Part shown: piece after piece, positions 1,824 to 35,530 of the stretch | Position numbering within the stretch: position 1 is the first letter of the stretch | Layout of the letters: each line of letters opens with the position of its first letter | Virus record (IMG/VR): IMGVR_UViG_3300023297_000041 | Location: 1 to 36,309 of that record | Reading direction: 5' to 3' (one strand) | Source: a virus | Length of the DNA stretch: 36,309 nt | Position numbers and translations under genes: made by a program | Notes under the pieces: generated by a model | The model's input: only the letters and a program-made list of their open reading frames with translations | Databases searched by the model: none | What the model was told of the DNA's origin: nothing

Positions 1824-2452
1824 TGGCAAAGAAGCAGAAAAAACGCAAGGCCAAAACACAACTTGAGCCAGGGGATTACCTCGATGCTGAGCAGGTCCGG
1901 TTTGTTTTAGAGATTTTAAGGTCTGAGGCAAAAAACGGAAGCTTTCGAACTGCTGTCCGGTTATTTATATTCCAACTATTAGTCAATACAGGACTTAGGC
2001 GCTCTGAGGCGGTAGGCCTGCAGCTGAGAGATCTGCCAGGGGCACACGGGAAAAGCGAGATTGTAGTTCGATGGGAATTAAGTAAGAGCCGGCGGAACCG
2101 CGGTGTGATTATCAGCGACTCATTTAAAACAGTCCTGGCTAGTTATGTCGAGAGATTTTGCAAAAACCAACGAGATACAGCTCCATTATTATTAAATGAA
2201 CATGGCCGGCAGATGACTCCCCGAAATATATTCGACAGGATAAAAACTATCGGTCGTCATGTCGGAATAACGGGGCTCCATCCTCACACAATGAGACACA
2301 CCCACTTAAGCCTTTTGTACGGAATTGACAAGGATCAGATGTTTGTGAAGCACCAAGCCGGCCACTCTAAGCTCGACACCACAAATATATATGTCCATAT
2401 CAGCGATGCTGGGCGTAAAAGGCAGGTTTCTAAGCTGGACTGGCTTGTATAG
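1823..2452 (+). CDS. Tyrosine recombinase / phage integrase, catalytic domain only
   Basis: A 209-residue protein starting at GTG 1823 behind a GGGAGG Shine-Dalgarno at 1809-1814. All tyrosine-recombinase catalytic residues are visible: Arg59 in NTGLRRSE, Lys88 in ELSKS, His155 and Arg158 in HPHTMRH, His181 in AGHSKL and the nucleophile Tyr190 in TNIYVH. A basic N-terminus (KKQKKRKAK) is followed almost directly by the catalytic domain, so the SAM-like core-binding domain of typical integrases (300-400 residues) is missing. It may integrate the phage, resolve genome dimers like Xer proteins, or rely on a partner for core binding. The repeat-rich non-coding stretch downstream is a natural attachment-site candidate. 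Confidence 0.85.
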   Translation: MAKKQKKRKAKTQLEPGDYLDAEQVRFVLEILRSEAKNGSFRTAVRLFIFQLLVNTGLRRSEAVGLQLRDLPGAHGKSEIVVRWELSKSRRNRGVIISDSFKTVLASYVERFCKNQRDTAPLLLNEHGRQMTPRNIFDRIKTIGRHVGITGLHPHTMRHTHLSLLYGIDKDQMFVKHQAGHSKLDTTNIYVHISDAGRKRQVSKLDWLV

Positions 2453-4982: not shown

Positions 4983-5237
4983 CCGAAATGTAAAAGTTGT
5001 GATTATAACCCGCACGAACACGATATGCTTAACGGCTATTGTAGGATGTGTGCAAGCAATTTAACAGAGAAAGCAGAGCAACTCCAATCCGACCTCTCTG
5101 CGGTCAAGGATGAGAGGGATAAATTAAAATATACAATAGGGGCAGCAATTGAGCATTTGTCAGATTCTCAGTGCTGTATGATAAACAATCAAGCAAAAAT
5201 GATTCTAGAAAGTGATGGTGAGAAATGGAAACATTAA
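4980..5237 (+). CDS. Zinc-finger plus coiled-coil small protein
   Basis: An 85-residue protein. The N-terminus has CKSCDYNPHEHDMLNGYC and CRMC, a four-ligand Cys/His zinc site within residues 4-25. A coiled coil follows (EKAEQLQSDLSAVKDERDKL), then a helix and the ending ESDGEKWKH. The SDLSAVKxE core and ESDGE end are shared with the 54-residue protein at 3452-3616, where the DNA also matches closely (GAAAGYGATGGTGAG). It looks like a fusion of a zinc knuckle to the duplicated coiled-coil module. It overlaps the amidase gene by 13 bp. Confidence 0.6.
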   Translation: MPKCKSCDYNPHEHDMLNGYCRMCASNLTEKAEQLQSDLSAVKDERDKLKYTIGAAIEHLSDSQCCMINNQAKMILESDGEKWKH

Positions 5238-5839
5238 TTAAAGCATGTTACTTCAAAGCGAAGTTTGAAAAGAAGAAAAAGATCTGGCAGGAAGGCTACT
5301 GGTCACAGATGATAGCCAAGCACGCCAGGGGCGACTACAGCCATGAGGAACTAAGGATTAAATGGACTGTCATATCTGCATTGTATGATAAATGGGTTGG
5401 TAATAGTGCTTCGTATCGAATTTCTGATCACGCTATTCTACTTCACGCCCTTGTGACCAAACAAGATGTATGCTTTAGCTCATCAGAGCGTGACGGTGGA
5501 GTCAGATTTAAGATGGCCTCACTGGTTTTAAAGAATCCCAAGCGATGGGATATTGAGGATGTTACCGGTGATATGACCAAGGCTGTTACAATGCTCGAGG
5601 GAGCTATCGAGCAAGACGGAAAGAAATACGACTGGCCGGCAGTTATTGGATTTAAACTTTCCTTTATTAATGAGAATCCAGAGAAGTGGTTCTGTAATGA
5701 GATCTGTGACTACCTTAAGATGACAGTGGGATTATGGCCAGAAGGAATTTACAGATTGCACCCGGATGTAAGTCAGCGAATCCAGCGATACATCTCAGAA
5801 CAATACAAGATGAGAACTCAAAGGGACGGCCTTAAATGA
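5225..5839 (+). CDS. Permuted papain-like (NlpC/P60-type) amidase
   Basis: A 204-residue protein with the order of motifs I know from phage permuted-papain proteins (YiiX/YaeF-like): YSHEELRI with His40 as the expected catalytic histidine, CFSSSERDGGVRFKM (about 83-97), KYDWPAVIGFKL (about 134-145) and KWFCNEICDYL with Cys157 as the expected nucleophile. About 40 residues separate the His and FSSSERDGG motifs, longer than usual, including YRISDHAILLHAL. The family cleaves amide bonds in peptidoglycan or lipids. There is no signal peptide. Role here: lysis-related or virion-associated wall hydrolase; the small membrane protein directly downstream supports a lysis-type pair, but this is inference. 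Confidence 0.6.
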   Translation: METLIKACYFKAKFEKKKKIWQEGYWSQMIAKHARGDYSHEELRIKWTVISALYDKWVGNSASYRISDHAILLHALVTKQDVCFSSSERDGGVRFKMASLVLKNPKRWDIEDVTGDMTKAVTMLEGAIEQDGKKYDWPAVIGFKLSFINENPEKWFCNEICDYLKMTVGLWPEGIYRLHPDVSQRIQRYISEQYKMRTQRDGLK

Positions 5840-17934: not shown

Positions 17935-18597
17935 ATGAATAAGACAGACATTATCAACGCTGCTCTATTCGTTATAGGGTCAAAGAAAATCTTTGCACCT
18001 GCCGATAATACCAAATCCGCAAAATATGCCACTTCAATTTACGATTTCTGTCGGCACTTAGTTTATGATATGCCTATCGACTGGAGATGGGCTATTGCCC
18101 GAAGTAACCAATTAGCCCAACTTGCAGACCCCACCACGGGACCTGACCATCAATATGCACTACCAGATAACTGCGTTAGGCCACTGGCGATGGTTGATGT
18201 AGATGGTGATGAAGTTGAATATACGTTCCAGCCTGGTCTATTGGTGGACGGCGGTAATATTACCAAAACACTGCAAACTAATGTCGATTCCGGCGATGTG
18301 TATATTAAATACATAGTCTTTGTCGAAGATGAGGCGATGTATCCATCTTGGTTCTCACAACTTATTGCTCTAAACATTGCATTATATATTTCAGAGCCTA
18401 TCAAGCAACACACTCCACACTACAATAAAGTAAAAGATATGTTGGATAATGCTTATGTAGTTGCTACCGAGGCGAATGCCTTATGGGGTGTTAAAACCAA
18501 CTCTAAAACCCGCCGACCTGTAGATTTTGGAAACGATGCTCTTGTTAACGCTGCCGTGCAGTCAGAGGGAATTATAATTAATTATGGATTTTGTTAA
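17935..18597 (+). CDS. Tail adaptor, tail tubular protein A (gp11)-like
   Basis: A 220-residue protein behind TTAGGAG. It follows the T7 gp11-type pattern: DIINAALFVIGSKKI at the start, SIYDFCRHLVYDMPIDWRWAIAR (about 34-56), QYALPDNCVRPLAM (about 72-85), VYIKYIVFVEDEAMYPSWF and a helical end. This adaptor ring joins portal and nozzle. It has no signal peptide, in contrast to the genes around it, so it should stay in the cytoplasm with the head. Confidence 0.8.
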   Translation: MNKTDIINAALFVIGSKKIFAPADNTKSAKYATSIYDFCRHLVYDMPIDWRWAIARSNQLAQLADPTTGPDHQYALPDNCVRPLAMVDVDGDEVEYTFQPGLLVDGGNITKTLQTNVDSGDVYIKYIVFVEDEAMYPSWFSQLIALNIALYISEPIKQHTPHYNKVKDMLDNAYVVATEANALWGVKTNSKTRRPVDFGNDALVNAAVQSEGIIINYGFC

Positions 18598-19803: not shown

Positions 19804-21039
19804 ATGAAATACATTATTATTATATTATTATTTTGTTCGATTACTTTTGGCCTTAATTGGAATCTAAATTCTGATTGCTGGGTAAACTTTGAGGACTTTG
19901 CTATCTTTTCAGATGGATGGCAAACCACTTATGATATAAATGATTTAGCTGATTTTTCAGATGAATGGTTAAGGTATGAATACTATTGCAATGAGCAAGC
20001 TCCAGTTGCTGCTAATTCTGTTGTGAATGTATCGCAATACGAACCTGTTTATATCACATTCTCGGCGTATGACCAAGATGGATTTCTGCCAGTACCACCT
20101 AAACATCTTAAATACCGAATTACTACCCTGCCATCAGATGGCAACGCCTACATTCAAAACACGCTCGAAAATACTTCAAATAGGTTTACCGAAGTCCCTG
20201 ATTGGTGTACTGGCTGGGCGAATAAAGTTATATTTGCTTCCGATACAGTTGGTAATGATACAGTAAAATTTAGGTCTTATGACGGCGAAGAGTTTAGTAA
20301 TGAGGCAACTGTTGACGTTAATGTTATTGCGGCATATGCTGATTATGTATCATTTGATGGTGGCGAAGTTACAATCCCAGATAATGACTATTTAGATATT
20401 AATGATAGTGGCTGGGCAATGAGTATTTGGTATAGAAATATGACCAGCAGTTCCAATGGAAGCATTATTAAAAAAAGAGATAGCAGTCAGGGATGGGATT
20501 TTATTGTTCAATCAGGTAAGTTACTATTTAATCTGTACGATGCGAATGGATTGGTAGTAGCTCTCGAAAGTAACCTCTGCATATCTTATGGCATTTGGTG
20601 GGAAATACTCATTGGAGTTAATGAGGACCCTTGTGATGCTAACAATCAGTATATTTCAATGCAATACTACCAAACAGAAACAAACAGTGGGGAGTATGCC
20701 AATTCAAATGTTTTTGTCTCATCGGTCTACACAAATGATTGCAATGTGATTATCAATCCAAACACTGAAATTGACCATTTAAGATTCTGGGATGATGTAA
20801 GTGAGGAAAGTCATGCAACGACAGTTTTATTCCCAACAAACAGTCGGTGGAATTATACAGAGTCTACATTAGGCATAGGCAATCCATCCAAGGTTCGGTT
20901 TAAAATGGATGAGGGAAGCGGTAGCACAATCACAGATGATAAGGCCAGTGGGCTGGTAGGGACATTCAGCGGGGACGTGTCTTGGATACCTTTGTTTTGG
21001 GACTGGAATAAAAACGGATTACAAAAAATAGAGAACTAA
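19804..21039 (+). CDS. Signal peptide plus dockerin-like plus LamG-type adhesin
   Basis: A 411-residue protein. Residues 1-16 form a signal peptide (MKYIIIILLFCSITFG). Residues 17-60 are dockerin-like: NLNSDCWVNFEDFAIFSDGW and YDINDLADFSDEWL, two calcium-loop/helix halves in the style common in secreted proteins of Phycisphaerae. Residues 65-170 resemble an Ig or cadherin-like domain (EPVYITFSAYDQDG, KVIFASDTVGNDTVKFRSYDG). From 180 on it is LamG/concanavalin-like (DNDYLDINDSGWAMSIWYRN, GSIIKKRDSSQGWDF). It ends with a TAATG overlap into the nozzle gene. It is probably a host-derived glycan-binding adhesin captured by the phage. I would take a fibre role as first choice. Confidence 0.7.
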   Translation: MKYIIIILLFCSITFGLNWNLNSDCWVNFEDFAIFSDGWQTTYDINDLADFSDEWLRYEYYCNEQAPVAANSVVNVSQYEPVYITFSAYDQDGFLPVPPKHLKYRITTLPSDGNAYIQNTLENTSNRFTEVPDWCTGWANKVIFASDTVGNDTVKFRSYDGEEFSNEATVDVNVIAAYADYVSFDGGEVTIPDNDYLDINDSGWAMSIWYRNMTSSSNGSIIKKRDSSQGWDFIVQSGKLLFNLYDANGLVVALESNLCISYGIWWEILIGVNEDPCDANNQYISMQYYQTETNSGEYANSNVFVSSVYTNDCNVIINPNTEIDHLRFWDDVSEESHATTVLFPTNSRWNYTESTLGIGNPSKVRFKMDEGSGSTITDDKASGLVGTFSGDVSWIPLFWDWNKNGLQKIEN

Positions 21040-23624
21040 TGATTAAAAGAGTCCTTATATTTTTGTTGTTATGCTCTAATCTTTTTGGGGCTACAAGTAT
21101 AATCAATGCCTTTAATGCTGGCGAAATATCGCCTCAATTAAATGGTAGAACTGATATTGCTAAGTATTATTCCGGATGCGAGACGCTGGAAAACTTTCTT
21201 GTATTCAGCTATGGTGGAGCGAGTCGACGGCCTGGCACAATGTATATTGCCGATGCCAAAAACTCTGACGAGGCTTGTAGATTAATACCCTTCGAGTTCT
21301 CAACTGAACAAGCTTATATCCTTGAATTTGGCGATGAATATATCAGGTTCTATAAAGATGGTGGGCAGATACAAGATGGGAGCAGCCCTTGCGAAATATC
21401 AACTCCTTATGATACAGACGCTGGCACAAACTTATTTGAGCTGCATTATATCCAATCTGCCGACACGATGTATATTACACATCCAGATTATGCGCCTCGG
21501 AAACTAACTCGAACAGGCCATACATCTTGGACATTAACGGAAGTAGATTTTAAGCGTGGTCCATTCTTAACTGAAAATACTACAACAACAACCATAACAC
21601 CGTCGGCAACGACAGGGACAATCACACTAACCGCCAGTAGTGCTATATTTGATGTGAATGACCACGTTGGTGCTTTGTGGCAGGTAACACATACCGCAGA
21701 GGGGGAATCTGTTTCTGGGTCGTTTTCTCACGATGTTAATGCCCAGGACTCAAACTCACTTACAATGCAGCTCAATCGTAAATATTTGTTCACTACCCAT
21801 GGCACTTGGGCTGGCGATGTGATCCTGCAGCGAAGTTATGATAGCGGGACTGTATGGAAGGATGTCCTTCCTGTTCATTATGAATCTGATGGTAATAGGG
21901 AATATACTGAATCAGAAACCGTCGAGGATGCCATATACAGAGTTCATACCGATGCTAATGATAATGGTATTGATTCAGGCACACTCAAATATAATCTAAC
22001 GGCACTTAGTTTTGATATTGAAGGTGTTGTAGAGTTAACAGTAATAGCGTCCACAACATCAGCAACAGGGACGGTAGAAAATACTCTTGGTGGGACAACT
22101 GCAACCACTAACTGGGCTGAGGGTGCCTTTAGTCTGGATGAAGGATACCCAGCAACGTGCAGCTTCTACGAAGAGCGAATAGCTTATGCCGCCACAACCA
22201 ACCAACCACAAACAGTATGGTTATCCCAAACAGGGGAATGGGATAACTTCCTGGCGGGTAATTTAGATTCTGATGCTATGAGCTATACTATTGCAGCCGA
22301 TGAAGTTAACGCTATCAGGTGGCTTAGTCCCCAAAGCTGGCTGCTCATTGGAACAACTGGCGGCGAGTGGAAGATGGGGTCTGGCTCCGATGGGGCTTTA
22401 ACGCCCACAGATAGAGTTGCAAAAAAACAATCTAATAATGGATCGGCTAATCTGCAGCCGGCAGTATCTAATAATGTTATTATATATGTTCAGAGGCAGG
22501 CTCGCAAGGTTCGAGAGTTAGTTTTTAGCTTTGAAGTTGATAGCTGGTTAAGCCCAGACCTTACGATCCTCAGTGAGCACATAACTAATTCTGGCATTGT
22601 TCAAACGGCTTTTCAAAAAACGCCCGACCCAATACTATGGACAGTACTAACCGATGGCCGTATTGCGACTATGACCTATCAGAGGTCTCAGGACGTTGTT
22701 GGCTGGGGCGAACAGAACTCTGGAGATGCCGATTTTGAGTCGGTGGCGGTAATACCAGGTGATGGCGAGGACGAGGTGTGGGTTTCTGTTGAGCGGTTAG
22801 TGGATGGTTCAATAGTTAGATATATAGAGCAATTCCAACCAAGGGACTTCGGGGCCGACCAAAATGATATATTCTTCGTTGATTCGGGCCTTAGCTTCGA
22901 TGGCGGGGACGCGGTTGTTATTACTGACATAACTTCAGCGTCTCCCGCTGTTGTAACTGCAGCTGCTCATGGCTACTCAGATGGTGACCAGGTGCGAATA
23001 ACATCCGTTGTCGGCATGACCGAAATTAATAACCACGTTTATACTGTTGATGATGCTGCAACAAACACATTTTCTCTTGATGATACGCTTAATAATAACA
23101 TTAATTCAGTGGGTTTCACGGCATATACTTCTGGCGGTTCAGTTGAACAGGTAGAAAATACATTCACAACCCTATCTCACTTAGAGGGCGAGATGGTAGA
23201 TATTTGCGCAGATGGTGAGTTCTATGGCACCGATACAGTCGCAAGCGGAACTATTACGCTTAGTGATTATTATAACACCGTTCACGCAGGTCTAAATTAT
23301 GTTTCAAAACTTGCTCCTATGCAATTAGCGATACCAGGTAATGTTATTGCCGGTAAGACAAAGAGAATTACTGATATTACAGCCCGATTCTACAAGACCT
23401 TGCAATGTAAGTATGGTCCAACTGCTGATTCTGTACTAGACTTATTTGATTTTTCAGAAGAATATACTAATGACATCGATGTCAAGCAGAGCCTGTTTAC
23501 AGGAGAGAGAAAACAGGAATTTGACGGAGACTATCGAACTGTAGGCGAAATATACCTGCAGGTCGATGAGCCAGTGCCATGTTCAATATTGAGTATATCG
23601 CCGGAATTTGAAGTTTATAGATAG
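21039..23624 (+). CDS. Tail nozzle-like protein (tail tubular B-like) with an added signal peptide
   Basis: An 861-residue protein. The conserved podovirus start FNAGEISPQLNGRTDIAKYY (residues 25-44) and NFLVFSYGGASRRPGTMYIA identify the family. Further family motifs: FYEERIAYAATTNQPQTVWLSQTG, WLLIGTTGGEWKMG and QARKVRELVFSFE. An FCCH-type insert lies around residues 631-680 (VVTAAAHGYSDGDQVRI). Unlike the family, it begins with MIKRVLIFLLLCSNLFG, a Sec signal peptide of 17 residues placed ahead of the conserved domain, with no alternative in-frame ATG until the GTM near residue 67. In related phages this protein forms the hexameric nozzle at the tail tip. Confidence 0.82.
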   Translation: MIKRVLIFLLLCSNLFGATSIINAFNAGEISPQLNGRTDIAKYYSGCETLENFLVFSYGGASRRPGTMYIADAKNSDEACRLIPFEFSTEQAYILEFGDEYIRFYKDGGQIQDGSSPCEISTPYDTDAGTNLFELHYIQSADTMYITHPDYAPRKLTRTGHTSWTLTEVDFKRGPFLTENTTTTTITPSATTGTITLTASSAIFDVNDHVGALWQVTHTAEGESVSGSFSHDVNAQDSNSLTMQLNRKYLFTTHGTWAGDVILQRSYDSGTVWKDVLPVHYESDGNREYTESETVEDAIYRVHTDANDNGIDSGTLKYNLTALSFDIEGVVELTVIASTTSATGTVENTLGGTTATTNWAEGAFSLDEGYPATCSFYEERIAYAATTNQPQTVWLSQTGEWDNFLAGNLDSDAMSYTIAADEVNAIRWLSPQSWLLIGTTGGEWKMGSGSDGALTPTDRVAKKQSNNGSANLQPAVSNNVIIYVQRQARKVRELVFSFEVDSWLSPDLTILSEHITNSGIVQTAFQKTPDPILWTVLTDGRIATMTYQRSQDVVGWGEQNSGDADFESVAVIPGDGEDEVWVSVERLVDGSIVRYIEQFQPRDFGADQNDIFFVDSGLSFDGGDAVVITDITSASPAVVTAAAHGYSDGDQVRITSVVGMTEINNHVYTVDDAATNTFSLDDTLNNNINSVGFTAYTSGGSVEQVENTFTTLSHLEGEMVDICADGEFYGTDTVASGTITLSDYYNTVHAGLNYVSKLAPMQLAIPGNVIAGKTKRITDITARFYKTLQCKYGPTADSVLDLFDFSEEYTNDIDVKQSLFTGERKQEFDGDYRTVGEIYLQVDEPVPCSILSISPEFEVYR

Positions 23625-24741: not shown

Positions 24742-25263
24742 ATGCCACTTATTACATTGGGCATTATCGCTATTGCTGCAACGGCTGGAGCTACATACTA
24801 CAGTATGCAGCAGGCTAAACAGCAAGCCAATACAGCTAATAAGATAGCTGAAAACAACGCCCAGCAGATTGAGGCACAGGGAGCCGCCCAGGCAAAGCAG
24901 ATAAAGACCGCCTCAAGGGAAAAACAAAGGTTACTGCTGGATGAACGCCGCCGGGCAATTGCACGCAACAGAGCTAAAACTGGAGCCTCTGGTGTAACTA
25001 TGGAAGGCTCACCATTGTTGAACATGCAGGAAACGGCAAAGAATATAACCTTAGATAAGGAAATGGAAAACTATAATGCCGGTATAGAGGCCGATGCTGT
25101 TGTAACAAAGGCAAAATCTGAGGCGGCTTTATGGAGATATAAGGGCAAGTCTGCTATTGCGGCAGGTAAATTACAGGCAGGGGCAGCATTATTTGGTGGA
25201 GCCTCGCAAATGGCCGATATAGGCATGAGTATGAAATCCGCCCAAAATAAAGGGGTTACATAA
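24742..25263 (+). CDS. Internal virion protein B (gp14)-like, membrane-inserting
   Basis: A 173-residue protein. The start at ATG 24742 has AAGGAAAGGG upstream; the longer in-frame start at 24700 inside the previous gene is rejected. Residues 1-20 form a hydrophobic helix (LITLGIIAIAATAGATYY), then a long Gln/Ala-rich helical region (ANTANKIAENNAQQIEAQG), KTGASGVTMEGSPLLNMQET and a glycine/alanine-rich end. This fits gp14-like ejected proteins that form a channel in the host envelope. The N-terminal helix lacks a cleavage site, unlike the surface proteins. Confidence 0.7.
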   Translation: MPLITLGIIAIAATAGATYYSMQQAKQQANTANKIAENNAQQIEAQGAAQAKQIKTASREKQRLLLDERRRAIARNRAKTGASGVTMEGSPLLNMQETAKNITLDKEMENYNAGIEADAVVTKAKSEAALWRYKGKSAIAAGKLQAGAALFGGASQMADIGMSMKSAQNKGVT

Positions 25264-27068
25264 TGCCGATAATAATACCGCAACGAAAAATACTACCAAC
25301 TAAGCAGATAGCCGACACTCGCGTTACAATGCCGATGGATACATTTAATGGCCAGTTTGCGGCAGGTCAGAACCTTGCTAATAGCGTAAAGCAAGTCGCT
25401 GGGTTTATTGGCGATACCGTTAGTAAAACAATCGTGGCCCAGGGCGAAGAGGAATTTACTCAAGCTAAGTTAGATTATGAAACTGAGTTCCGGACTTTTC
25501 AAGCAGGTTTGGGGCAAGATACAGATTACGCAGGGTATACCAAGAAATTTAATAACTGGCATGATAATTATACCGTAGGCAGAGCAAAATTAATTAATCA
25601 TCGAGGAGCACAATCGAGAGCAAAAGCACAGTTCGATTTGAATAGGGCAGTTAGAGGCAGGACGGTTGATACTAACGCCCAAAACGCACTTGTTAGACAG
25701 ACCAGGGCGGCCATACCGAACAAAATAGAATCTTTTGTTGATGAATACTTAGCAGCTGAGACTCCAGAGACTCAGCATAAATCGGTTGCTGAACGCCATG
25801 GGTATTTCCAAACACTAACGCAAACGGGAGTTTTGAATCCTGATGAAGCTATAGCTATTGAAAAAGATTTCCGGAAAGCTCTAGCAAAGAAGGTTGTACA
25901 AAACACCGTTACGGCCATAGCATTAGAAGAGGGTTGGGAAAAAGCTATTGCATGGGGTGGAGATAACCAAAACATTAAAGAACTGGCAGAAGATTTCGAT
26001 ATTGAATTGTCCGATATTACCGCAGCACTCACGCCGATCATGCAACTGGCTAAAGTAAACAGAGCATCTGGAATTATTGAGCTCAATAAACAGCAAGATA
26101 CTGACAGGGAGTCTTTGCGGGGGTTATTAAATTCTGATAGTTCCGTGGGCTATAATGATGCAATTAACGGATCCAGCTTAATTCCCGAAGAAAGGCTTGT
26201 GTGGGACAATCGTTTCGCTAAAAAAGCAAATCACATCATTGATACAAAACAACAAACAGAAGAAGATAGACTTGGAAATATAATAAATGCCAGGAAGAAA
26301 TCGGATTACGCATCTCTGGTTACCGCATCATCTTTACCTGCTACCAAAAAGGCAGAACTTATTGCTGCCAACGAAACAGCATTAAAAGAATCCACTCATA
26401 TTATTACTGATGAACAGGTTAGGGGCGATCTTGAAGAGATGGCTAACGATATTGCAATTGGAGCGACAACTAAAGCACAGGTAACAGATGCTGCTGACAA
26501 GGCCAGGTATGACGAGGAAACTATCGATGACGCGGCATACAAGCAAATAGTTAAACTTGTTGATAGTGAGTTTACCTCTTACCAGGCAACGGCCATGGGG
26601 GAAGCTATCAGTTATGGTGGTGGCCAATTGATCACTGTAACTCACTCTGTTATTGACGATCTATTAAAAATGCAGGCAGCCGGCCAAGAGGTTAATATCG
26701 AACGAGCAGCAAATAAACGTCAGAGCGAATTATGGAATTTAAGTCAGTACCGCAAGGCTATGAATGATTGGTTGGCCGTGCATCCAGAATCTAATTCAAG
26801 TGAGATATACACCGAATCCAGAAAGCTCTTAGTACATTACAAGCGATCACTGGCTGAGGTAGAAAAGGCACGTACTGGCTTTGAGGAACAATTTATAGCT
26901 GAACCAACAAAAGAAAAGGCTATTGAGGGTGTTAACGTGGTGTTTAAAAAGCCTGTCCGTGTAATGAGTCCTGAAGGCGTGACCGGCTGGAGTAGCGAAA
27001 AAGGATATAACGAAAAATTAAAAGACTTGGGTTTTATAAAGATTAGCGATGCCAATAATACTAAATGA
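25263..27068 (+). CDS. Internal virion protein C (gp15)-like
   Basis: A 601-residue helical protein between the gp14-like and the giant internal protein, the position and size class of T7 gp15 relatives. Features: FNGQFAAGQNLANSVKQVAGFIGDTVSK near residue 24, then long charged helices (EEFTQAKLDYETEFRTFQ) with repeated TPR-like spacing. I see no enzymatic motif and no signal peptide. It is probably part of the ejected core complex that bridges portal and channel. It joins the upstream gene by TAATG and overlaps the next gene by 20 bp. Confidence 0.6.
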   Translation: MPIIIPQRKILPTKQIADTRVTMPMDTFNGQFAAGQNLANSVKQVAGFIGDTVSKTIVAQGEEEFTQAKLDYETEFRTFQAGLGQDTDYAGYTKKFNNWHDNYTVGRAKLINHRGAQSRAKAQFDLNRAVRGRTVDTNAQNALVRQTRAAIPNKIESFVDEYLAAETPETQHKSVAERHGYFQTLTQTGVLNPDEAIAIEKDFRKALAKKVVQNTVTAIALEEGWEKAIAWGGDNQNIKELAEDFDIELSDITAALTPIMQLAKVNRASGIIELNKQQDTDRESLRGLLNSDSSVGYNDAINGSSLIPEERLVWDNRFAKKANHIIDTKQQTEEDRLGNIINARKKSDYASLVTASSLPATKKAELIAANETALKESTHIITDEQVRGDLEEMANDIAIGATTKAQVTDAADKARYDEETIDDAAYKQIVKLVDSEFTSYQATAMGEAISYGGGQLITVTHSVIDDLLKMQAAGQEVNIERAANKRQSELWNLSQYRKAMNDWLAVHPESNSSEIYTESRKLLVHYKRSLAEVEKARTGFEEQFIAEPTKEKAIEGVNVVFKKPVRVMSPEGVTGWSSEKGYNEKLKDLGFIKISDANNTK

Positions 27069-30000
27069 CAAAAAGGTTATAGATAATTCCATCGATGATG
27101 ACATCAGTGATGTATTTATCCCTGACATCCAGCCACAATCGAACGTTATAGCAGATCCTGACAGCGTTGGAAATAATGCCAACGAAATCTACGATATTGC
27201 TGTTAACGCTAGTGCTTCTATATCTGATATAGAAAATAATTTTGTTCCCGATAATCAGATGCAGTCGGTGATCAAAGAGAAGGTAGCCCAAAATGTTATC
27301 ATCGAGCAAGCCCGGATAGCCGAGGATGCAGAGCTCCGATCAGAAGCTCTTGACAGACTCATATTTGGTGATGGCCTGGACGATCCTGTATTCGCCGGAA
27401 AAATTGCAACTACCCTACTAAACCCTGTCGAAAAGGAGAGAATGACGGATGCGATTATTACATCGGGCATGTTTGATATTCCACTTGACCATGTTATGGG
27501 CATGGACGATGCTGCTAGGGCTAAGGTCTTTGGCCCTGAATTAAAAGATATCCGAAAAAAGTTTCAGCAGAACCCATTCGATGGCGGGTTCTTTGCAACA
27601 TCTATAGAGGCTTGGAAACGAGGCGATGCGGGTTTTATGGGTGCGATTAATCTTTGGGATGCTGCTGTTCAAAATGCTGATGAGACTAAAGCCAGAGCAA
27701 CACTGGGAACTCTACAAAGAAAAGAAGTTTTTGAGCCCATCGAGGCTAAGGGTATTAAAAAACTGTTTTATTCATCAATGCAAATCATACCCGGTATGGC
27801 TAGGGGTTCATGGGAAGGTATTGATGAAGCTTTTTATGGTGCGGCTATCGGTGCTGGTATGGCATTAGCAGGTGGAGCTGCTGGGCCACAGGCGGTTATA
27901 CCAGAAGAAATAGTTACTGTTCCTGTTGCCACAATGGGCGGACTTAGGTTAGGTGCTTCAATTGGCTCTGCAAAAGTGTGGTATAAACAGGGTGCTGGTC
28001 AGATGTATTTTGATATGACTGAAAAAGGCTATGATCCAAAGGTCGCAAGGATGGTAGCTGGTGTTGCCGCCGTTCCTTATGCTCTTATCGAATTGAGTCA
28101 GGTTACAAAGATTACACCGGGATTGCGGAAAGTGGCCTTGGATAGATCTATCAAAACCGTTGGCAAAGTATTAGCCAATGCCGTTAAAAAGTATGGTAAA
28201 ACTTGGGGCGAAGAGGTTTTCGAGGAGATAATGCAGGAAATTGTCGCTGTAACCGCCGAAGATATAGCGGGGCTTTTAAGCGAAACAACCAATACTGAGA
28301 AATCTACTTGGGAGGGGTTGTTAAAAAGAGGTAAACGTTTATGGGAAACGGCCAAGGGTGCCGGAGAGGGCATGGCCTTATTGCCGATTCCAAACGCTGT
28401 TATAGATGTCAAGTCGGGGATTCAAAACATATCTGCCAGTACCATATCAAAACAAAAGGTACAGGCTAAAGCTCAGGCCTTGACAGTTTCAAAACTCACC
28501 GATGAGTATAGCTTGAAAGTTGCACAGCAGTCTCAAGGTGTCATTGAGATATTAGAGCAAGCCAAAAAGGGCGTTCCCGCCGATCCTGAGACCGGCAAGG
28601 CGGCAGTACCGCCGAGAGTATTACAGCCCGAAGAGGCCAAAATGTTAACTACTCTCAAAGAAAACCTCTCCACCCCAGAGAACATAGTCCACGACCTTGA
28701 GCTTAATTTGCCACCGGAGGCCTTTGTTACCGAAGAGGCTACTATTCCAACGGAAAAACCGAGTACAGAGCAACTTGGGGCTGTGGAGGTGGTAGAAAAG
28801 ACCATAGACGTTGGGGCACCTGTTGGTAAGGAAGGCATTGAGCTTGAGGACTTAGAGGGGACGCCGGTACCTATCAATGAAGATAACACAATAACTCTCT
28901 ACCACAGAACTTCCATTGAAAACGTCGAAAACATCAGAAAAACAGGTGAATTTGTTTCTAAAGAGCAAGGCGAAGTATTTTTTTCTACCAAAGAAAAAGG
29001 CCAAGCAGAAGGTTTTGGCGAGGGCATTATTGAGATTAAAATAGATCCATCAAAGGTGGCATTAGATGACGCTTTTTCTGGAGGTGAAGTACATGTATCC
29101 GTATCCAACAAAGACATTACAGTAGAAAATATAAGCCAGCCTGAAAGTGTTCCACGTGAAGCAAAACGCATAATCTCAGACGAAGCATATACCAAAGCCA
29201 AAAAAGGCCTATTTGGTAAGGGTTTTCGTTCTGGTTTAGATCCTGTAGATTTCAAAAACGCTGCAATCATAGGGACGTATCATTTTGAGAACATGGCAAA
29301 GGCCGGCATCAAAGGTGCTGTTGATTTTGCTGAATGGTCTAAGAGAATGGTGATTGAGATGGGTGAGACTATCAAGCCACACCTAAAGGATATATGGGAA
29401 AAGGCCAGGTCTCCACTATACGCGGCTATATCTGACAAAGAAGGCCGCAAAATGACCATACGAATTAATAAGGAAATCAGATCTCTAGGCGACTATGAAA
29501 CACTCGCTGAAAGTGGTTCAGCACGCAAAGCCGACCTACTCCAGAATATAAGTAAAATCAACTTTGCTAAAGACAGAAAATCATTGCCGGCAGAAGTCAA
29601 AGAGATGTTGACCGGCGAAAATCGCTGGCTATATGAGTATGTAACAACTACAGAACAAAATCCAAGTGCGTTAACATGGGATGAATTTTCCGAGGACTAC
29701 GGCATTGAGGGTTCAGAAAGCGATGTTTTACAGGCTATTAAGGATGCCGTTCAAGGCGGGAAAGAGGGTGGCATAAACCAAAAGGCGTTAAATGAAATCG
29801 CTAAAACTAATCCTTACGCAGCTATGCTTGTGGAATTAAAAAATGCAGTAGAAAATCGCTTGCCTGGTAACAAGATTAACGATATACTACAAGCATATAT
29901 TAATGAGGACTTGTTAGATGACGAAGCAATTGAACAATGGAAAATCGGTCGAGAGCCGGATAAAAAGAGCACGGGCAGCAAGCCAAAAGATAGTTCAAGA

Positions 30001-32871
30001 CTACCTCGCAAGCCAAAAGTCCAGCCAAAAACCAAACCAAAATCAAAAGTAGCCTCTATACCAAAGACACTGCCGGAGAACTTCGCAGTACGTATGGCTG
30101 AAGAAAATGCCGTGCTGGAAAAGATGCTCGCCGAAATGCAAGCCCTGTCAGAAGGGCAGCAGGACAAAGCTTTCAATACCCATCTCAAAGAAGCCATCGC
30201 CAAAAATACAGCTGACGCTAAACAACTCGAGACTGATCGGGCCAGGATAAACGAACTGTTTGAGAAGAGGGTATTTGACGCATCAACTGGCGAGAGGAGC
30301 ATTAAGGAAATAGCCAAATCAGCTGCTGATAGCATGGTTGAGATAGCTAAGAGCGTTCCTGATATGCTAATCAAGGTATTCGAGCCAGCCAAGCTAGTGG
30401 AGACACGGCTAGGCCCTAACGTATATGCCACAGTAATCAAAGGGATGCACTTATCAGAGCGAAGACTACTGGAATTTAACGAGCAGGTGCTCGACGTTGT
30501 TGATATGAACTTTAGGGAGTTAGAGGAGTTTTTTGCAGGGTTCAGTAAAAATGATTTAAAGAATTTTATGCTATCTCGAGGCAAGCCAAGGGGTGACTTT
30601 GCTAAGGAAATCAGGGACAAAGCCTCTGTTGCAGCGCCGGAGGCGTTGAAAGATGGCGGCTTTGAGCGAGCTATCAAGCAAATTGCCGATTTCAACTACG
30701 CTAAATTATCTGAAGTTGCCGGCGGTGATATTGCTAAGGTTAAAGATTACTTCTATGGCCTATACTCTCAATCACCTTCTGAGGTTGACAAATTCATTGA
30801 CCAATACTACCGCACAACAAAGCGGTTTATGGAAGAAAAGAGTTTACCAACGCCGGCGGATGCACTTGAGTTTGGTTTGACGCTAAAGTCGTATAACCCT
30901 GTTACAAACCTCAAATCTGAATGGATGGGCATTGCCAGGCTCGAGGGGATCCAGACGATGCGTAACGAACTAATGAGAATGGGGCGTGGAAAATATATTG
31001 GATCTGTTATAGAGGATGATATTCCGGATGGTTGGGTAAAGATTGGCACAGAGCCCGTTTTTGATGGATTAAGAGCCAACGAAGACCTTGCTCGTTTAAT
31101 AAACAATCTTATTTCTATTAACAAAACCAGTGCGTATCTGCCATTGCGAACTATTAGGGGGATTAATAATGTTCTTCGGATAGCTAAATTTGCAGGCTCT
31201 GCATTCCATTTAACGGTCGAGGCCTCTCAGGCGGTTGCAGATAGCCCATTGTTGAATCCAGCCTCAGCAACAAGAGGGTTCCAGACGGGCTTTAAGACCG
31301 ATGATCCTGCATTCAAAACACCTGAGTACAGGGATTATGTGGGCCTGGGTGGCCACCAGCGAAGCAGTATTGAATCTGAGTCTCAAGCATTGTTTAGCGA
31401 AATAGTTGCTGCCACGGGCGGGCTTGGTGCTACTATTAAAGTCGCTGCAACCCCACTGAAGATCACAAGCCAGTTTACCGAGTGGATGTTTAGTAGTTAT
31501 ATTCCAAAACTTAAATACGTAAAGTATCTTGATTTCATGTCCCAGCAAGAAAAGAAGCTTGGTCGAAGTTTAACTGATGCTGAAAAGATAAATATTATTA
31601 AAGAAGGCCAGAACTTCTATGGCGAAATGAATGAAAAACTGTTCGGTAGATCAGCTACAGTAACTTCCGTTTTAAGGTTTATATTCCTCGCTCCAGGCTT
31701 TGCAGAGGGTAACTATCGTACAATCGCCAAAGGCGCTACTCAGTGGGGAGTAGGGGATACTTACGCAGCTGGCAGGTCTAGGCGTAACGTTGTTAATTCT
31801 CTAATACTCAAATTGATTGCTTCTACTGTAGGCACAATGATATTAACCGGCAAGCCTCCAGAGAAACCTGAAAAAATTGAGGATGTTCGGGACCTATTCA
31901 AAATTGATACAGGTAAAGTTGACGATAGAGGCCGTAGGATTTTGATAGACACCTTGACCTACGATAAGGACTACTACAATTTATTATTAGGCTGGGCCCA
32001 GCACGGCACAACTTCATTGGGTAAAGAGATTTTGCGGAGAGTTGGCGGCATGAGAGCTCCCCTGGCTGATATAACATACGATTTGGTTACGGTTGCATTC
32101 AATAAAGATATTTACGACTGGAAAGGCGATAATGTTATTCGCAGTACTGATTCGGTCCTTACAAAACTTCAAACGCTCGCAGAATTTGAATTAAAAAAAT
32201 TAGAGCCTATATCGGTATCAGTTTTACGGCAGGGACTAAACAAGGGCATGACTCTTCCGGTAGCTATATTGCAATCAATAACAGGCGTTAGACCCACTTT
32301 GACAGAGGCTGAGATACGTAAAGGCCAGGTATTGCGTGATGTATATGAGTTATGGGGCGAGCGAGAGGAAGTCTTTATCTCTGTCCGTACAACTCGAAAT
32401 CCACGCGGGCGGATAGCAGCTTACAACCAAAAGATCGATAGAGTTATGGGTAGTGATAAAGTACCACCGGACATCAAAGAAGAATTTGAGGGCCAATTGC
32501 GTATCGATACTGAAAAGTTCCTTGAGAACAAAGAGAAAAATTACCAGTCCAGCTCCCACACACTCAAGGAGGCCGAGAGAATCAAGGAGCTATTAGTCAA
32601 TTTCAAAATTGAGCCCAAGGGAATATGGGAAGTATCGCCAGAACTGAGCAAAAGGCTATCAGATTTCACGTTTAAACGCCGACGACTGAAGTCGAAAGTG
32701 GATGATGGCCTGGCCGATTCAGCAGAAACAACACAGTCCTTTATTATGAACGGATTGCAATTAAGGATTGGTAAGGTGGCTAAGGTTGTGGCAAACGCAA
32801 AAGATGCCGAACAGCGGCAGCAGTTAATTGATATTGTTGAAAATTTATTAAATTTAGCAAAAACAGATTAA
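27049..32871 (+). CDS. Giant ejected virion protein with an ADP-ribosyltransferase-like domain
   Basis: A 1940-residue protein, the largest in the window, in the place of T7 gp16. Residues about 270-460 are glycine/alanine-rich, membrane-active-looking helices (AAIGAGMALAGGAAG, EEVFEEIMQEIVAV). Residues about 612-700 match an ART fold: TLYHRTSIENVENIRKTGEF (His619), GEVFFSTKEKGQAEGFG and SGGEVHVSVSNKDITVE (Glu680). Residues about 735-800 have DPVDFKNAAIIGTYHFENM and DFAEWSKRMVIEMG, known from large phage polyvalent proteins. A Lys/Pro linker lies near 970-1005. Later FGSAFHLTVEASQA-type and FSSYIPKLKYVKYL motifs match ejected proteins. I did not find a transglycosylase motif. Confidence 0.75.
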   Translation: MPIILNDKKVIDNSIDDDISDVFIPDIQPQSNVIADPDSVGNNANEIYDIAVNASASISDIENNFVPDNQMQSVIKEKVAQNVIIEQARIAEDAELRSEALDRLIFGDGLDDPVFAGKIATTLLNPVEKERMTDAIITSGMFDIPLDHVMGMDDAARAKVFGPELKDIRKKFQQNPFDGGFFATSIEAWKRGDAGFMGAINLWDAAVQNADETKARATLGTLQRKEVFEPIEAKGIKKLFYSSMQIIPGMARGSWEGIDEAFYGAAIGAGMALAGGAAGPQAVIPEEIVTVPVATMGGLRLGASIGSAKVWYKQGAGQMYFDMTEKGYDPKVARMVAGVAAVPYALIELSQVTKITPGLRKVALDRSIKTVGKVLANAVKKYGKTWGEEVFEEIMQEIVAVTAEDIAGLLSETTNTEKSTWEGLLKRGKRLWETAKGAGEGMALLPIPNAVIDVKSGIQNISASTISKQKVQAKAQALTVSKLTDEYSLKVAQQSQGVIEILEQAKKGVPADPETGKAAVPPRVLQPEEAKMLTTLKENLSTPENIVHDLELNLPPEAFVTEEATIPTEKPSTEQLGAVEVVEKTIDVGAPVGKEGIELEDLEGTPVPINEDNTITLYHRTSIENVENIRKTGEFVSKEQGEVFFSTKEKGQAEGFGEGIIEIKIDPSKVALDDAFSGGEVHVSVSNKDITVENISQPESVPREAKRIISDEAYTKAKKGLFGKGFRSGLDPVDFKNAAIIGTYHFENMAKAGIKGAVDFAEWSKRMVIEMGETIKPHLKDIWEKARSPLYAAISDKEGRKMTIRINKEIRSLGDYETLAESGSARKADLLQNISKINFAKDRKSLPAEVKEMLTGENRWLYEYVTTTEQNPSALTWDEFSEDYGIEGSESDVLQAIKDAVQGGKEGGINQKALNEIAKTNPYAAMLVELKNAVENRLPGNKINDILQAYINEDLLDDEAIEQWKIGREPDKKSTGSKPKDSSRLPRKPKVQPKTKPKSKVASIPKTLPENFAVRMAEENAVLEKMLAEMQALSEGQQDKAFNTHLKEAIAKNTADAKQLETDRARINELFEKRVFDASTGERSIKEIAKSAADSMVEIAKSVPDMLIKVFEPAKLVETRLGPNVYATVIKGMHLSERRLLEFNEQVLDVVDMNFRELEEFFAGFSKNDLKNFMLSRGKPRGDFAKEIRDKASVAAPEALKDGGFERAIKQIADFNYAKLSEVAGGDIAKVKDYFYGLYSQSPSEVDKFIDQYYRTTKRFMEEKSLPTPADALEFGLTLKSYNPVTNLKSEWMGIARLEGIQTMRNELMRMGRGKYIGSVIEDDIPDGWVKIGTEPVFDGLRANEDLARLINNLISINKTSAYLPLRTIRGINNVLRIAKFAGSAFHLTVEASQAVADSPLLNPASATRGFQTGFKTDDPAFKTPEYRDYVGLGGHQRSSIESESQALFSEIVAATGGLGATIKVAATPLKITSQFTEWMFSSYIPKLKYVKYLDFMSQQEKKLGRSLTDAEKINIIKEGQNFYGEMNEKLFGRSATVTSVLRFIFLAPGFAEGNYRTIAKGATQWGVGDTYAAGRSRRNVVNSLILKLIASTVGTMILTGKPPEKPEKIEDVRDLFKIDTGKVDDRGRRILIDTLTYDKDYYNLLLGWAQHGTTSLGKEILRRVGGMRAPLADITYDLVTVAFNKDIYDWKGDNVIRSTDSVLTKLQTLAEFELKKLEPISVSVLRQGLNKGMTLPVAILQSITGVRPTLTEAEIRKGQVLRDVYELWGEREEVFISVRTTRNPRGRIAAYNQKIDRVMGSDKVPPDIKEEFEGQLRIDTEKFLENKEKNYQSSSHTLKEAERIKELLVNFKIEPKGIWEVSPELSKRLSDFTFKRRRLKSKVDDGLADSAETTQSFIMNGLQLRIGKVAKVVANAKDAEQRQQLIDIVENLLNLAKTD

Positions 32872-32884
32872 AAGGATTCTCACA

Positions 32885-35530
32885 ATGAAAAAGTTAATCA
32901 TAGTATTATTGTTAATTGTTTGCAGTTATTCTGTGGCCACTATGAGCAGCCAGTCGGCTAAGACTTCGTTATTTACAGGTGATGCCGTAACAACGGCCTT
33001 TACTTTCACGTTCCCCGTAGATACCGGCTCAAGTGGCTCACACGCTGACCTTGAAGTGTATCTGATTGTAACTGCCACAGGAGTAGCCACGCAGCAGACA
33101 GAGACCACACATTACGCCGTATCTGCCACAAATAACAATTTTACTGCCGGCGGCACGGTTACAATGGTTACAGCTCCAACAGCCCTGCAGCAGCTTTTAA
33201 TTGCTCGAGATTCCGGTATCACTCAGAACAGCGATGTTGGCTCTTCGGGTGTGAGGCTTACTATTGAAAACGCATTAGACAAACTAACCCGGATAGGTAT
33301 TGAGCAACAGGATCAAATCGATAGGTCTATCCATATACCCATAACCGATGACCCTAATCTAAGTATGGAGTTAGGCAGTGCCATTGAACGGGCAAACACA
33401 ACTTTAGGCTTTGATGCCGATGGTAATCCAGAACTTTCGACTACGCTCGAAACAAGCGTTGTTATAACCGCCGCAGGTAAGGGATTGATCGATGATGATA
33501 CTTATGCGGATATGAGAACAACCCTTGGGGTTTCCGCCAGTAGCGAGACTAGTATTAGTGGAATATGGACAAATGTCCAAGATTATGATGCGGTTGGCGA
33601 TGGAGCTACCGATGACACAGTAGCGATTCAGGCGGTAATTGATGCTGCAAGCTCAGGTACAATAATCACAGGCAATGGTGCAACGTATGCAGTAAAAGCA
33701 CTATATCTCAAGAGTGATATTATGTTTAGAGATTTTGATTTTTTCTCAATAGCAATGGCAACCGAGGAGGGCTATGATGGATTGAGCCCAGTGAATATCG
33801 GGCATAACGAAACAGACTCTAATGACTATAATGATATTTATGTAACCAACGTCCATATTGATGGTAACCGAACCAATCAAACAGGGATTTCTTCAGCGAT
33901 GAAGCGATCTGGTTTTAGACTCGCCGGTAAAATGCACGATATATATATCGAGAATAGTTCGGCAACTTACTGTGCTGGTGATGGTATTTGGATGGGGCGT
34001 GGTGCTACATTTACAACTGTAGAAGATGCCAATGTTGCTCTCAAGAGGAATATAAATATAACAAATTGCATATTCAACTGGAACAAAAGGCAAGGTGGTA
34101 GTGGTGACTCTATAGAAGATTCCACTATAACTAACTGCCATTTTAATTATAACGGTAGGGCAATTAACGGTGAGACACTTGCAAACGTTCTGATAGGGGA
34201 TACAGCGTGGACTGACTTTCTTGGTTGTGGTGTATGGATAGAATCTTACCAGGCGTTTGACTTTTGGGGGAATCTTAATTTTGTTAATTGCCAGTTCATC
34301 GATAACGAACGGAGCGGACTCTTGATTCACGGCGGAGACTTTGATCCCGACACAGAAGCGAGCTTTGTTGTTCGAGGCCCACTTAACGTAGTGAACTGTT
34401 CCGGAACGCATGGAACGGGTGAACACTACTCAACTGAATGGAGCTATCTCGATGCGTTTACAATCTCGCCATATAGAGACCACAGAGGTATTGACTGGTC
34501 TCCGTTCTGCAATGATGTTAGTTTTATTAATTGTAATACCATAGATCCAAGCCAAGGCCGTTTGCAGGCTTGGAATGTCAATAGGCTTTCGATAATAGGC
34601 GGTTCTTTTTCGACCATAGTTGGTTCAACTACTGATATGATTTTGAATGCTTGTACAAACGTTAGTCTAAGGCACCCACAAGTATCAGATCCGCCAGATA
34701 CAACGATATCCGTTACTGATTGCACCTTCTTAGATAATAGAACCGAGGAACAGGACGATCTCCGGAGCTTCACAAAGGGTACTATCAGGGATATGTTATT
34801 GTATGAAATCCCAACTACCGCATCTTATGTAAATGCTTTGTGGTTCTTTGATACTACTTCAGGTGGAACCGTAACAGACTGGGGCCAGAACTCCCACGAT
34901 CTAACACTCTCAGCAACAATAAGCAGCTGGACTCATTTTTACGAGGGGTTCAGTCCTTATATCCGCCCATCAGGAGCGTTGACTTTTGATATAGCAGACC
35001 ATGATGATTTTTCTTTTAACGGTACTGCTGATACTGCCTTTTCAATAGTTGCGTTATTAAAATACAACCCAAGCAACGGAACTATTCTTGCGAAGAGAGA
35101 TAGTACTACCGGCTCAGAGCAGAAGGAGTGGTTATTCTACACTAATGGCTCTGACGAGTTGACTTTAGAATTATCTGACAACGATTCTGGAGATGGTGGT
35201 AAAGTTACATCTGCCACTGATGCTAATATGACAGCAGATGAGGATGAGGTTCACTGTTACGCAGTTTCTTATGATGGCAGTGCAGCGGGAACTGGGATTG
35301 CTTTCTACCGGGATGGAACCGCAATGGCAGCCACAGCAGCAGATGCTGGAACCTATACTGCTATGAGAAATACTACTTCCAAAGTTGGAAACTACTACAT
35401 AAATACCGTACCGGCAAACGTTACGGGACGGCACTCCTATTTAACTGTTATGGTTATAAGAGAAGAGTTATCAGCTGCCAATATGAAAAGAATAAGCGAT
35501 TTATTACTAAGCTATGCAAACGCCAATTAA
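32885..35530 (+). CDS. Tailspike with signal peptide, virion-binding domain, beta-helix and LamG-like end
   Basis: An 881-residue protein with AAAAGGA upstream. Residues 1-18 are a signal peptide (MKKLIIVLLLIVCSYSVA). Residues 20-160 are the usual phage fibre head-binding domain: TSLFTGDAVTTAFTFTFPVD, ALQQLLIARDSGITQ and NALDKLTRIGIEQQDQIDR. Residues 233-244 DYDAVGDGATDD start a pectate-lyase-type beta-helix with rungs such as ITNCIFNWN and FVNCQFIDNERSG. From about residue 651 there is a LamG/concanavalin-like domain (ALWFFDTTSGG, TILAKRDSTTGS). An in-frame ATG at 32942 (codon 20, MSSQSAK) sits exactly after the signal peptide but has no good ribosome-binding site. Likely role: receptor binding or glycan depolymerisation. 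Confidence 0.8.
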   Translation: MKKLIIVLLLIVCSYSVATMSSQSAKTSLFTGDAVTTAFTFTFPVDTGSSGSHADLEVYLIVTATGVATQQTETTHYAVSATNNNFTAGGTVTMVTAPTALQQLLIARDSGITQNSDVGSSGVRLTIENALDKLTRIGIEQQDQIDRSIHIPITDDPNLSMELGSAIERANTTLGFDADGNPELSTTLETSVVITAAGKGLIDDDTYADMRTTLGVSASSETSISGIWTNVQDYDAVGDGATDDTVAIQAVIDAASSGTIITGNGATYAVKALYLKSDIMFRDFDFFSIAMATEEGYDGLSPVNIGHNETDSNDYNDIYVTNVHIDGNRTNQTGISSAMKRSGFRLAGKMHDIYIENSSATYCAGDGIWMGRGATFTTVEDANVALKRNINITNCIFNWNKRQGGSGDSIEDSTITNCHFNYNGRAINGETLANVLIGDTAWTDFLGCGVWIESYQAFDFWGNLNFVNCQFIDNERSGLLIHGGDFDPDTEASFVVRGPLNVVNCSGTHGTGEHYSTEWSYLDAFTISPYRDHRGIDWSPFCNDVSFINCNTIDPSQGRLQAWNVNRLSIIGGSFSTIVGSTTDMILNACTNVSLRHPQVSDPPDTTISVTDCTFLDNRTEEQDDLRSFTKGTIRDMLLYEIPTTASYVNALWFFDTTSGGTVTDWGQNSHDLTLSATISSWTHFYEGFSPYIRPSGALTFDIADHDDFSFNGTADTAFSIVALLKYNPSNGTILAKRDSTTGSEQKEWLFYTNGSDELTLELSDNDSGDGGKVTSATDANMTADEDEVHCYAVSYDGSAAGTGIAFYRDGTAMAATAADAGTYTAMRNTTSKVGNYYINTVPANVTGRHSYLTVMVIREELSAANMKRISDLLLSYANAN

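What the first reader, a model, noticed from the sequence alone, without database searches (positions are those of the whole stretch)
28885..29150. ADP-ribosyltransferase-like domain inside the giant ejected virion protein
Residues about 612-700 show LYHRTS (His619), FFSTKEKGQAEGFGEG and a GGEVHV ending (Glu680), the H / S-T / E order of ART folds. Since this protein class is injected with the DNA, the domain could modify a host protein at the moment of infection, like T4 Alt, or act in conflict with other phages. Downstream LPD-like motifs (DFAEWSKRMV) fit the polyvalent-protein theme.
Basis: partly seen in the sequence, partly recalled or inferred. Interest (0 to 1): 0.7.

Follow-up and report, generated by a model that had tools for sequence, protein, structure and literature searches.

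The report
ADP-ribosyltransferase module in phage ejection protein
A short-tailed phage carries, inside the giant protein it most likely injects with its DNA, a small enzyme-like module of the ADP-ribosyltransferase fold that recurs in many otherwise unrelated phage proteins, so it is probably a portable tool for chemically tagging molecules in the newly infected cell.

Summary
Residues 612-696 of a 1940-aa ORF (27049-32871) contain H619, the FFST/GFG stretch and E680 as stated. This is a discrete, conserved domain, found stand-alone and in 12 giant phage proteins; between most pairs of the giants it is the only shared segment. In 22 aligned members E680, H682, D674 and F676 are invariant and H619 is in 21. 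No Pfam or NCBIfam model reports it; PHROG 6170 ('unknown function') does. AlphaFold2 models of the window domain (pLDDT 81) and a stand-alone relative (92.6) match the ADP-ribosyltransferase superfamily (KptA/Tpt1 best, Z 8.0 and 8.4; then TreTu, RhsP2, diphtheria-type enzymes, PARPs), with H619 in strand 1 and E680 at the start of the last strand. Gene order fits a T7-type ejection protein. A syntenic phage keeps the C-terminal 934 residues (66% identical) but has a different N-terminal half with an HNH/AP2 domain and no ART, so the payload appears exchangeable.

The parts
27049..32871 (+). giant ORF, 1940 aa, gp16-like ejection/polyvalent protein
   Evidence: gene order; no Pfam domain above cut-off; PHROG 28077 and 6170 matches
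28882..29136 (+). ART-fold domain, residues 612-696
   Evidence: phrog_6170 match at 611-689, E 8.4e-6; family alignment; AF2 model and fold matches
28903..28905 (+). His619 codon, strand 1, predicted NAD-binding histidine
   Evidence: 21/22 conserved; strand E15-21 of the model; alignment start offsets place it on known catalytic His positions
28978..28986 (+). F644-F645-S646, strand 2; aromatic plus Ser
   Evidence: F/Y at 644 in 21/22, S at 646 in 20/22
29011..29019 (+). G655-F656-G657 (family GYG)
   Evidence: aromatic in 22/22, G657 invariant
29068..29094 (+). D674-x-F-x-x-G-E680-x-H682, predicted catalytic Glu at the start of the last strand
   Evidence: D674, F676, E680 and H682 invariant in 22; strand E81-86 of the model
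27775..28635 (+). residues 243-529, module with hydrophobic segments shared with L015 and some cultured phages
   Evidence: 30% identity to L015 over 290 aa; matches to Phage zth2-2, Cobetia phage Carin1 and another; hydrophobic peaks at 288-353
29161..29409 (+). residues 705-787, LPD-like stretch including DFAEWSKRMV
   Evidence: 31% to a 'DarB-like antirestriction' giant protein of Bacteroides phage BKO1-TP3, E 2e-3
27049..30060 (+). exchangeable N-terminal half (payload segment), no similarity to the syntenic allele in L040
30061..32862 (+). constant C-terminal half, residues 1005-1938, 66% identical to L040
25263..27068 (+). large ORF in the gp15 position; residues 379-601 conserved (46%) in L040
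24700..25263 (+). internal virion protein (gp14-like), phrog_418
   Evidence: E 2.8e-15
21039..23624 (+). tail tubular protein B-like, phrog_376
   Evidence: E 4.1e-209
17935..18597 (+). tail tubular protein A-like, phrog_394
   Evidence: E 4.8e-26
32885..35530 (+). tailspike-like protein
   Evidence: endosialidase N-terminal and beta-helix Pfam hits, phrog_13893 and phrog_2234 tail

Best explanation
Residues 612-696 are a compact ADP-ribosyltransferase-fold domain with an H-(F/Y)-E active-site signature, carried as an exchangeable payload in the N-terminal half of a T7-type ejection protein. On infection the protein would enter the cell with the DNA. The domain would bind NAD+ (H619 on the ribose, F644 and F656 around the nicotinamide), and E680 would stabilise the oxocarbenium ion so that ADP-ribose is moved to a host macromolecule, most likely a protein, biasing the cell towards the phage or blunting an early defence. 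Shown here by computation: the domain, its conservation, its fold, its modular spread and the payload exchange. Inferred: catalysis, injection, target and effect.
For: Fold: the window model (pLDDT 81, pTM 0.75) matches KptA/Tpt1 (Z 8.0), TreTu (7.4, 83 aa, 2.9 A), RhsP2 (7.3, 94 aa, 2.9 A) and diphtheria-type enzymes (to 7.2). The relative L017 (pLDDT 92.6) matches Tpt1 at Z 8.4, 2.3 A over 77 of 86 residues, and by title 42 of the 50 rows are ADP-ribosyltransferases or KptA. Viral library: E 1.7e-6 to 1e-3, including a Mycobacterium phage Silverleaf protein that UniProt names ADP-ribosyltransferase. Active site: H619 21/22, E680 22/22. If no gap lies between the first aligned residue and the His, L017 H6 falls on chain positions DT 21, ExoA 440, tankyrase 1184 and RhsP2 1490, the known catalytic His (or Arg); the Glu falls within 1-4 residues of DT E148, ExoA E553 and tankyrase E1291 (ranges; RhsP2 R1490 and the beta-5 Glu from PMC12340436; other residue numbers from general knowledge). 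Delivery setting: T7-like gene order and a gp14-like internal virion protein; a relative fused to head maturation protease and head morphogenesis domains (L025); partners ddrB-ParB (L018) and ADPrib_exo_Tox (L029), typical of polyvalent proteins. Payload exchange: L040 keeps the C-half at 66% and replaces the N-half. Selection.
Against: No Foldseek PDB match passes E 0.001, and Z near 8 is close to what unrelated models can reach, so the fold call rests on the consistency of hits. The two models share one family alignment and are not independent. No atomic overlay of the active site could be made. Two of three mycobacteriophage relatives have His instead of Glu at the E680 column, L015 has Tyr for His619, and L016 has WHLC for YHRT, so some members may be inactive. 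No proteomics: virion packaging and injection are inferred. No target evidence.
Confidence: 0.62

Rival explanations
1. The domain is an RNA-directed ART or KptA-like RNA end-processing enzyme: delivered at infection, it would modify or repair host or phage RNA (for example tRNA cut by a defence nuclease) rather than a protein.
For: KptA/Tpt1, an RNA 2'-phosphotransferase, is the best fold match of both models, although tied with others. One relative is fused to a polynucleotide kinase-like/HAD domain (L021) and one to a 2'-5' RNA ligase (2H) domain (L020). Mycobacteriophage stand-alone relatives sit inside tRNA arrays beside a DUF4417 'nuclease' gene.
Against: E680 is invariant in the 22 aligned members, whereas KptA does not rely on a beta-5 Glu (general knowledge). 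The domain is acidic (window 9 K/R against 16 D/E; no member of the family is net basic), unlike the basic RNA- or DNA-binding surfaces reported for RhsP2 and DarT (PMC12340436). No tRNA lies near any of the other 23 loci scanned. Fusions to HNH-free partners such as GNAT, ParB and head proteins are as common.
Confidence: 0.22
2. The domain is an NADase or a protein toxin acting in phage-phage or phage-host conflict (superinfection, defence) rather than an injected host-modifying enzyme.
For: Stand-alone versions lie on mobilizable actinobacterial plasmids; of 296 actinobacterial genomes only the starting one had a match, so it belongs to mobile elements.
Against: No conserved partner gene that could be an antitoxin or immunity gene: upstream neighbours differ (DUF4417, phrog_7112, a 308-aa plasmid ORF). 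In giant proteins it sits in virion-type operons.
Confidence: 0.1
3. The domain keeps the ART fold but is catalytically dead and only binds a ligand or has a structural role in the ejection machine.
For: Substitutions at H619 or E680 in a few relatives.
Against: H619, E680, H682 and GYG are among the best conserved positions across unrelated hosts and architectures; a structural role would not explain absence of the domain from the syntenic phage L040.
Confidence: 0.06

Closest known systems
PHROG 6170 (stand-alone proteins of Lclasvirinae mycobacteriophages; one named ADP-ribosyltransferase in UniProt)
   Same: same sequence family: phrog_6170 E 8.4e-6 on the window protein; hhalign E 8e-14 with a member; YHRT, FFT/S and GYG motifs
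   Different: stand-alone, about 115 aa, in tRNA arrays; His instead of Glu at the E680 column in two of three; DDEFP stretch not kept
ART-PolyVal (PF18760; Tox-ART-HYD2 clade; Roseovarius Plymouth podovirus 1 vRNAP)
   Same: ART-type LYH...FF(T/S) start; sits inside giant virion-type phage proteins (PMC5512222)
   Different: ends in Asp (H-Y-D) instead of Glu; no match of PF18760 in 19 phage records with this domain although it rings in RPP1; hhalign probability 2.8%
T4 Alt (Alt/VIP2 clade)
   Same: ART packaged in the head and injected with the DNA; the model for deployment (PMC5512222)
   Different: R-S-E active site, separate protein of a myovirus; no sequence relation detected
KptA/Tpt1 and TreTu (solved structures)
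   Same: nearest folds, 77-86 residues at 2.3-4 A
   Different: no detectable sequence relation; KptA has an extra N-terminal lobe and no beta-5 Glu (general knowledge); TreTu is a secreted antibacterial toxin of an Rhs protein
T7 gp16 ejection protein
   Same: same place in the gene order, giant, variable N-terminal enzymatic domain (lytic transglycosylase in T7), conserved C-terminal part (PMC8954989)
   Different: carries an ART module instead; 1940 aa instead of 1318; no sequence match to T7 gp16 found

Membership tests
ART superfamily | split beta-sheet ART core | tested here: met
   both AF2 models match ART structures across the whole domain; Foldseek PDB probability up to 0.99 but E only 0.018
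ART superfamily | catalytic residues in place: His/Arg in strand 1, Glu at the start of strand 5 | tested here: met
   H619 in the first strand, E680 just before the last strand; conserved 21/22 and 22/22; geometry not overlaid atom by atom
ART superfamily | NAD+-dependent ADP-ribose transfer | not testable with these tools
   needs an enzyme assay
H-Y-E (ARTD/diphtheria-type) clade | Tyr in strand 2 stacking on nicotinamide | tested here: inconclusive
   F644 in the window; F in 14, Y in 7 of 22; second aromatic at 656 in 22/22
R-S-E clade (T4 Alt) | Arg in strand 1 | tested here: not met
   H619; His in 21 of 22
ART-PolyVal PF18760 | match to the family model | tested here: not met
   no hit in the Pfam scan nor in 19 records, positive in RPP1
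ART-PolyVal PF18760 | Asp in strand 5 (H-Y-D) | tested here: not met
   Glu in 22/22
PHROG 6170 | match to the family model | tested here: met
   E 8.4e-6, residues 611-689; genome search 4.9e-9
KptA/Tpt1 | match to the KptA family sequence model | tested here: not met
   Pfam and NCBIfam scans gave no KptA hit
Podovirus ejection protein (T7 gp16-like) | place after gp14- and gp15-like genes and before the tail fibre/spike | tested here: met
Podovirus ejection protein (T7 gp16-like) | present in virions and ejected | not testable with these tools
   needs proteomics
Polyvalent protein | several unrelated effector domains in one giant protein | tested here: inconclusive
   one ART domain and one weak LPD-like match in the window; relatives show ddrB-ParB, GNAT, 2H, a second ART and HAD/PNK partners

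The most novel reading that the evidence does not exclude
A T7-type ejection protein works as a polymorphic effector carrier: a constant C-terminal half and an exchangeable N-terminal payload (ART here, HNH/AP2 in a sister phage), with the ART acting on RNA at entry to undo or pre-empt tRNA-cleaving defences.
Probability: 0.15. Interest if true: 0.8.

Novelty: new variant of a known kind. Interest (0 to 1): 0.52.

Why it matters
ART domains in virion-borne polyvalent proteins are known, but this small family (about 80 aa, H-(F/Y)-E with GYG and DDEFxxGExH) has no Pfam or NCBIfam model and is filed as unknown function in PHROGs. It is the common denominator of many unrelated giant phage proteins, so one assay could give a function to a large set of dark proteins. 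The pair window/L040 also shows wholesale payload exchange on an ejection protein, which makes testable whether podovirus ejection proteins are a delivery platform for host-modifying enzymes.

Tried and rejected
Pfam and NCBIfam on the domain gave nothing or only chance hits. A sequence search of solved structures gave nothing credible. ART-PolyVal membership was tested and rejected. Toxin-antitoxin pairing was considered and rejected because partners differ. A tRNA-array link was tested on 24 loci and found only in the mycobacteriophage locus. Recent transfer of the cassette between the window and L002 was rejected: synonymous sites are saturated. Spread in actinobacterial chromosomes: only the starting genome of 296. 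DarT and PARP relations appear only at fold level. The first domain-based scan of genome contigs found nothing, nor did a scan of viral contigs with the M. intracellulare plasmid member. The paper describing TreTu and the 2015 ART review were not held.

Full report
What is there. The finding lies in ORF 27049-32871 on the + strand, 1940 aa. The quoted peptides are at the stated residues: LYHRTS 617-622, FFSTKEKGQ from 644, GGEVHV 678-683, DFAEWSKRMV from 759. The window is a 36,309-base virus record. It carries terminase, head-tail adaptor (portal-type), major head protein, tail tubular proteins A and B (phrog_394, phrog_376), an internal virion protein (phrog_418), a 601-aa ORF, the giant ORF and a tailspike, in T7-like order. 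An integrase gene near a replication initiator suggests a temperate podovirus.

A discrete, conserved domain. No Pfam model reports the domain, and the NCBIfam hits on it are chance, but phrog_6170 of unknown function matches residues 611-689 with E 8.4e-6. Scans of viral contigs and genomes gave 27 loci, read out. The domain occurs as a stand-alone protein of about 90-140 aa in phages and on actinobacterial elements, and inside giant proteins of 646 to 2499 aa. All-against-all BLAST of 13 giant proteins shows that for most pairs the only shared segment is this domain of about 85 residues. Against L002 it is 63% identical over 121 aa with no other significant match along the two proteins. Third codon positions there are nearly random while the protein is kept, so it is an old module under purifying selection and not a recent transfer between these two phages.

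Fold. AlphaFold2 on the window domain with 22 family members gave pLDDT 81 and pTM 0.75, with strands 15-21, 42-46, 59-65, 70-75, 81-86 and a helix at 23-32 (model residue n is protein residue n+600). With the stand-alone relative L017 as first sequence it gave pLDDT 92.6 and pTM 0.82 with the same element order. The two predictions use essentially the same family alignment, so they are not independent. The second look at PDB matches gave for the window model KptA/Tpt1 Z 8.0 (86 residues, 3.8 A), TreTu 7.4, RhsP2 7.3, diphtheria toxin up to 7.2, PARP16 5.5, DarT1 5.3; for L017 Tpt1 Z 8.4 (77 residues, 2.3 A). By title 42 of 50 rows are ADP-ribosyltransferases or KptA. Foldseek alone is weaker: best PDB E 0.018, probability 0.99, and 0.062. 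Z of 7-8 can arise for unrelated models, so the weight lies in the consistency of the list. In the viral library the best matches are phage proteins of the same kind, including one named ADP-ribosyltransferase in UniProt.

Active site. Across 22 members G657, D674, F676, E680 and H682 are invariant; H619 and T621 are in 21, S646 in 20, and position 656 is Y or F in all. H619 is in strand 1 and E680 just before the last strand. From the alignment ranges, and assuming no gap before the His, L017 H6 falls on position 21 of diphtheria toxin, 440 of exotoxin A, 1184 of tankyrase 1 and 1490 of RhsP2. These are the catalytic His, or in RhsP2 the Arg (R1490 from PMC12340436; the others are general knowledge). 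Counting back from the end, the Glu falls within 1-4 residues of the catalytic Glu of diphtheria toxin, exotoxin A and tankyrase 1. PMC12340436 describes the Glu at the start of strand beta-5 as common to almost all ARTs. The signature is therefore H-(F/Y)-E plus a conserved E-x-H. This is not the R-S-E of T4 Alt and not the H-Y-D of the ART domain that Iyer et al. described as the standard one in polyvalent proteins (PMC5512222). PF18760, that family's model, rings in its founding phage but in none of 19 records with the present domain, and profile comparison finds no relation.

Delivery and payload exchange. L040, from the same metagenome sample as L002 and L005, is a syntenic phage. Its giant protein (2108 aa) shares residues 1005-1938 at 66% identity but nothing detectable before that, and it has no ART domain. 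Its N-terminal half holds an HNH-endonuclease/AP2-like domain instead. The 601-aa ORF upstream is conserved only in its C-terminal part (residues 379-601), so the replaced segment is flanked by conserved sequence on both sides. T7 gp16 also has an exchangeable N-terminal enzymatic domain and a conserved C-terminal part (PMC8954989). Other carriers of the domain are joined to head maturation protease and head morphogenesis domains (L025), ddrB-ParB (L018), a second ART-type domain (L029), GNAT and 2'-5' RNA ligase (L020), or polynucleotide kinase/HAD (L021). This fits virion-borne polyvalent proteins. Packaging and ejection of the window protein remain inferred.

Mechanism. Best supported: an NAD+-dependent transferase delivered at entry, modifying a host macromolecule, most likely a protein by analogy with T4 Alt. 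The main rival is an RNA substrate. For it: KptA is the best fold match (tied with others), there are RNA-repair fusions in L020 and L021, and the mycobacteriophage relatives sit in tRNA arrays. Against it: the beta-5 Glu, the acidic composition and the absence of tRNAs near the other loci. An NADase or toxin role is less likely because no partner gene is conserved.

Verdict. It is a new, unnamed variant of a known kind: ART effectors in virion-borne giant phage proteins. Function is untested.

Noticed in passing
L021:4947-5777: A 276-aa phage protein begins MKLLREYIGMLLAE, which resembles a T4-type capsid-targeting peptide (resemblance from memory), followed by the ART domain and a polynucleotide kinase/HAD-like domain.
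   Followed up: partly
L040:3519-9845: The sister phage's giant protein has an HNH/AP2-like domain at residues 868-938 in the half that replaces the window's ART half.
   Followed up: partly
window 25263-27068: The 601-aa ORF before the giant ORF is also conserved only in its C-terminal part (379-601) against L040.
   Followed up: no
window 5225-5839: ORF with a match to phrog_1128, enoyl-CoA hydratase-like, in the moron/host takeover category.
   Followed up: no
window 1823-2452: Integrase-like ORF (phrog_216) near a replication initiator, suggesting a temperate podovirus.
   Followed up: no
L008:2272-3321, L009:1292-2330, L010:259-1306: In Lclasvirinae mycobacteriophages the stand-alone relative directly follows a DUF4417 'nuclease' gene inside a tRNA array, a stable two-gene unit of unknown role.
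   Followed up: partly
L002, L005, L040: Three of the related podovirus contigs come from the same metagenome sample (3300035698), so co-occurring phages carry different payloads.
   Followed up: no
window 21039-23624: The tail tubular protein B-like ORF has an E1_FCCH domain hit (E 9.7e-11) at residues 639-705.
   Followed up: no
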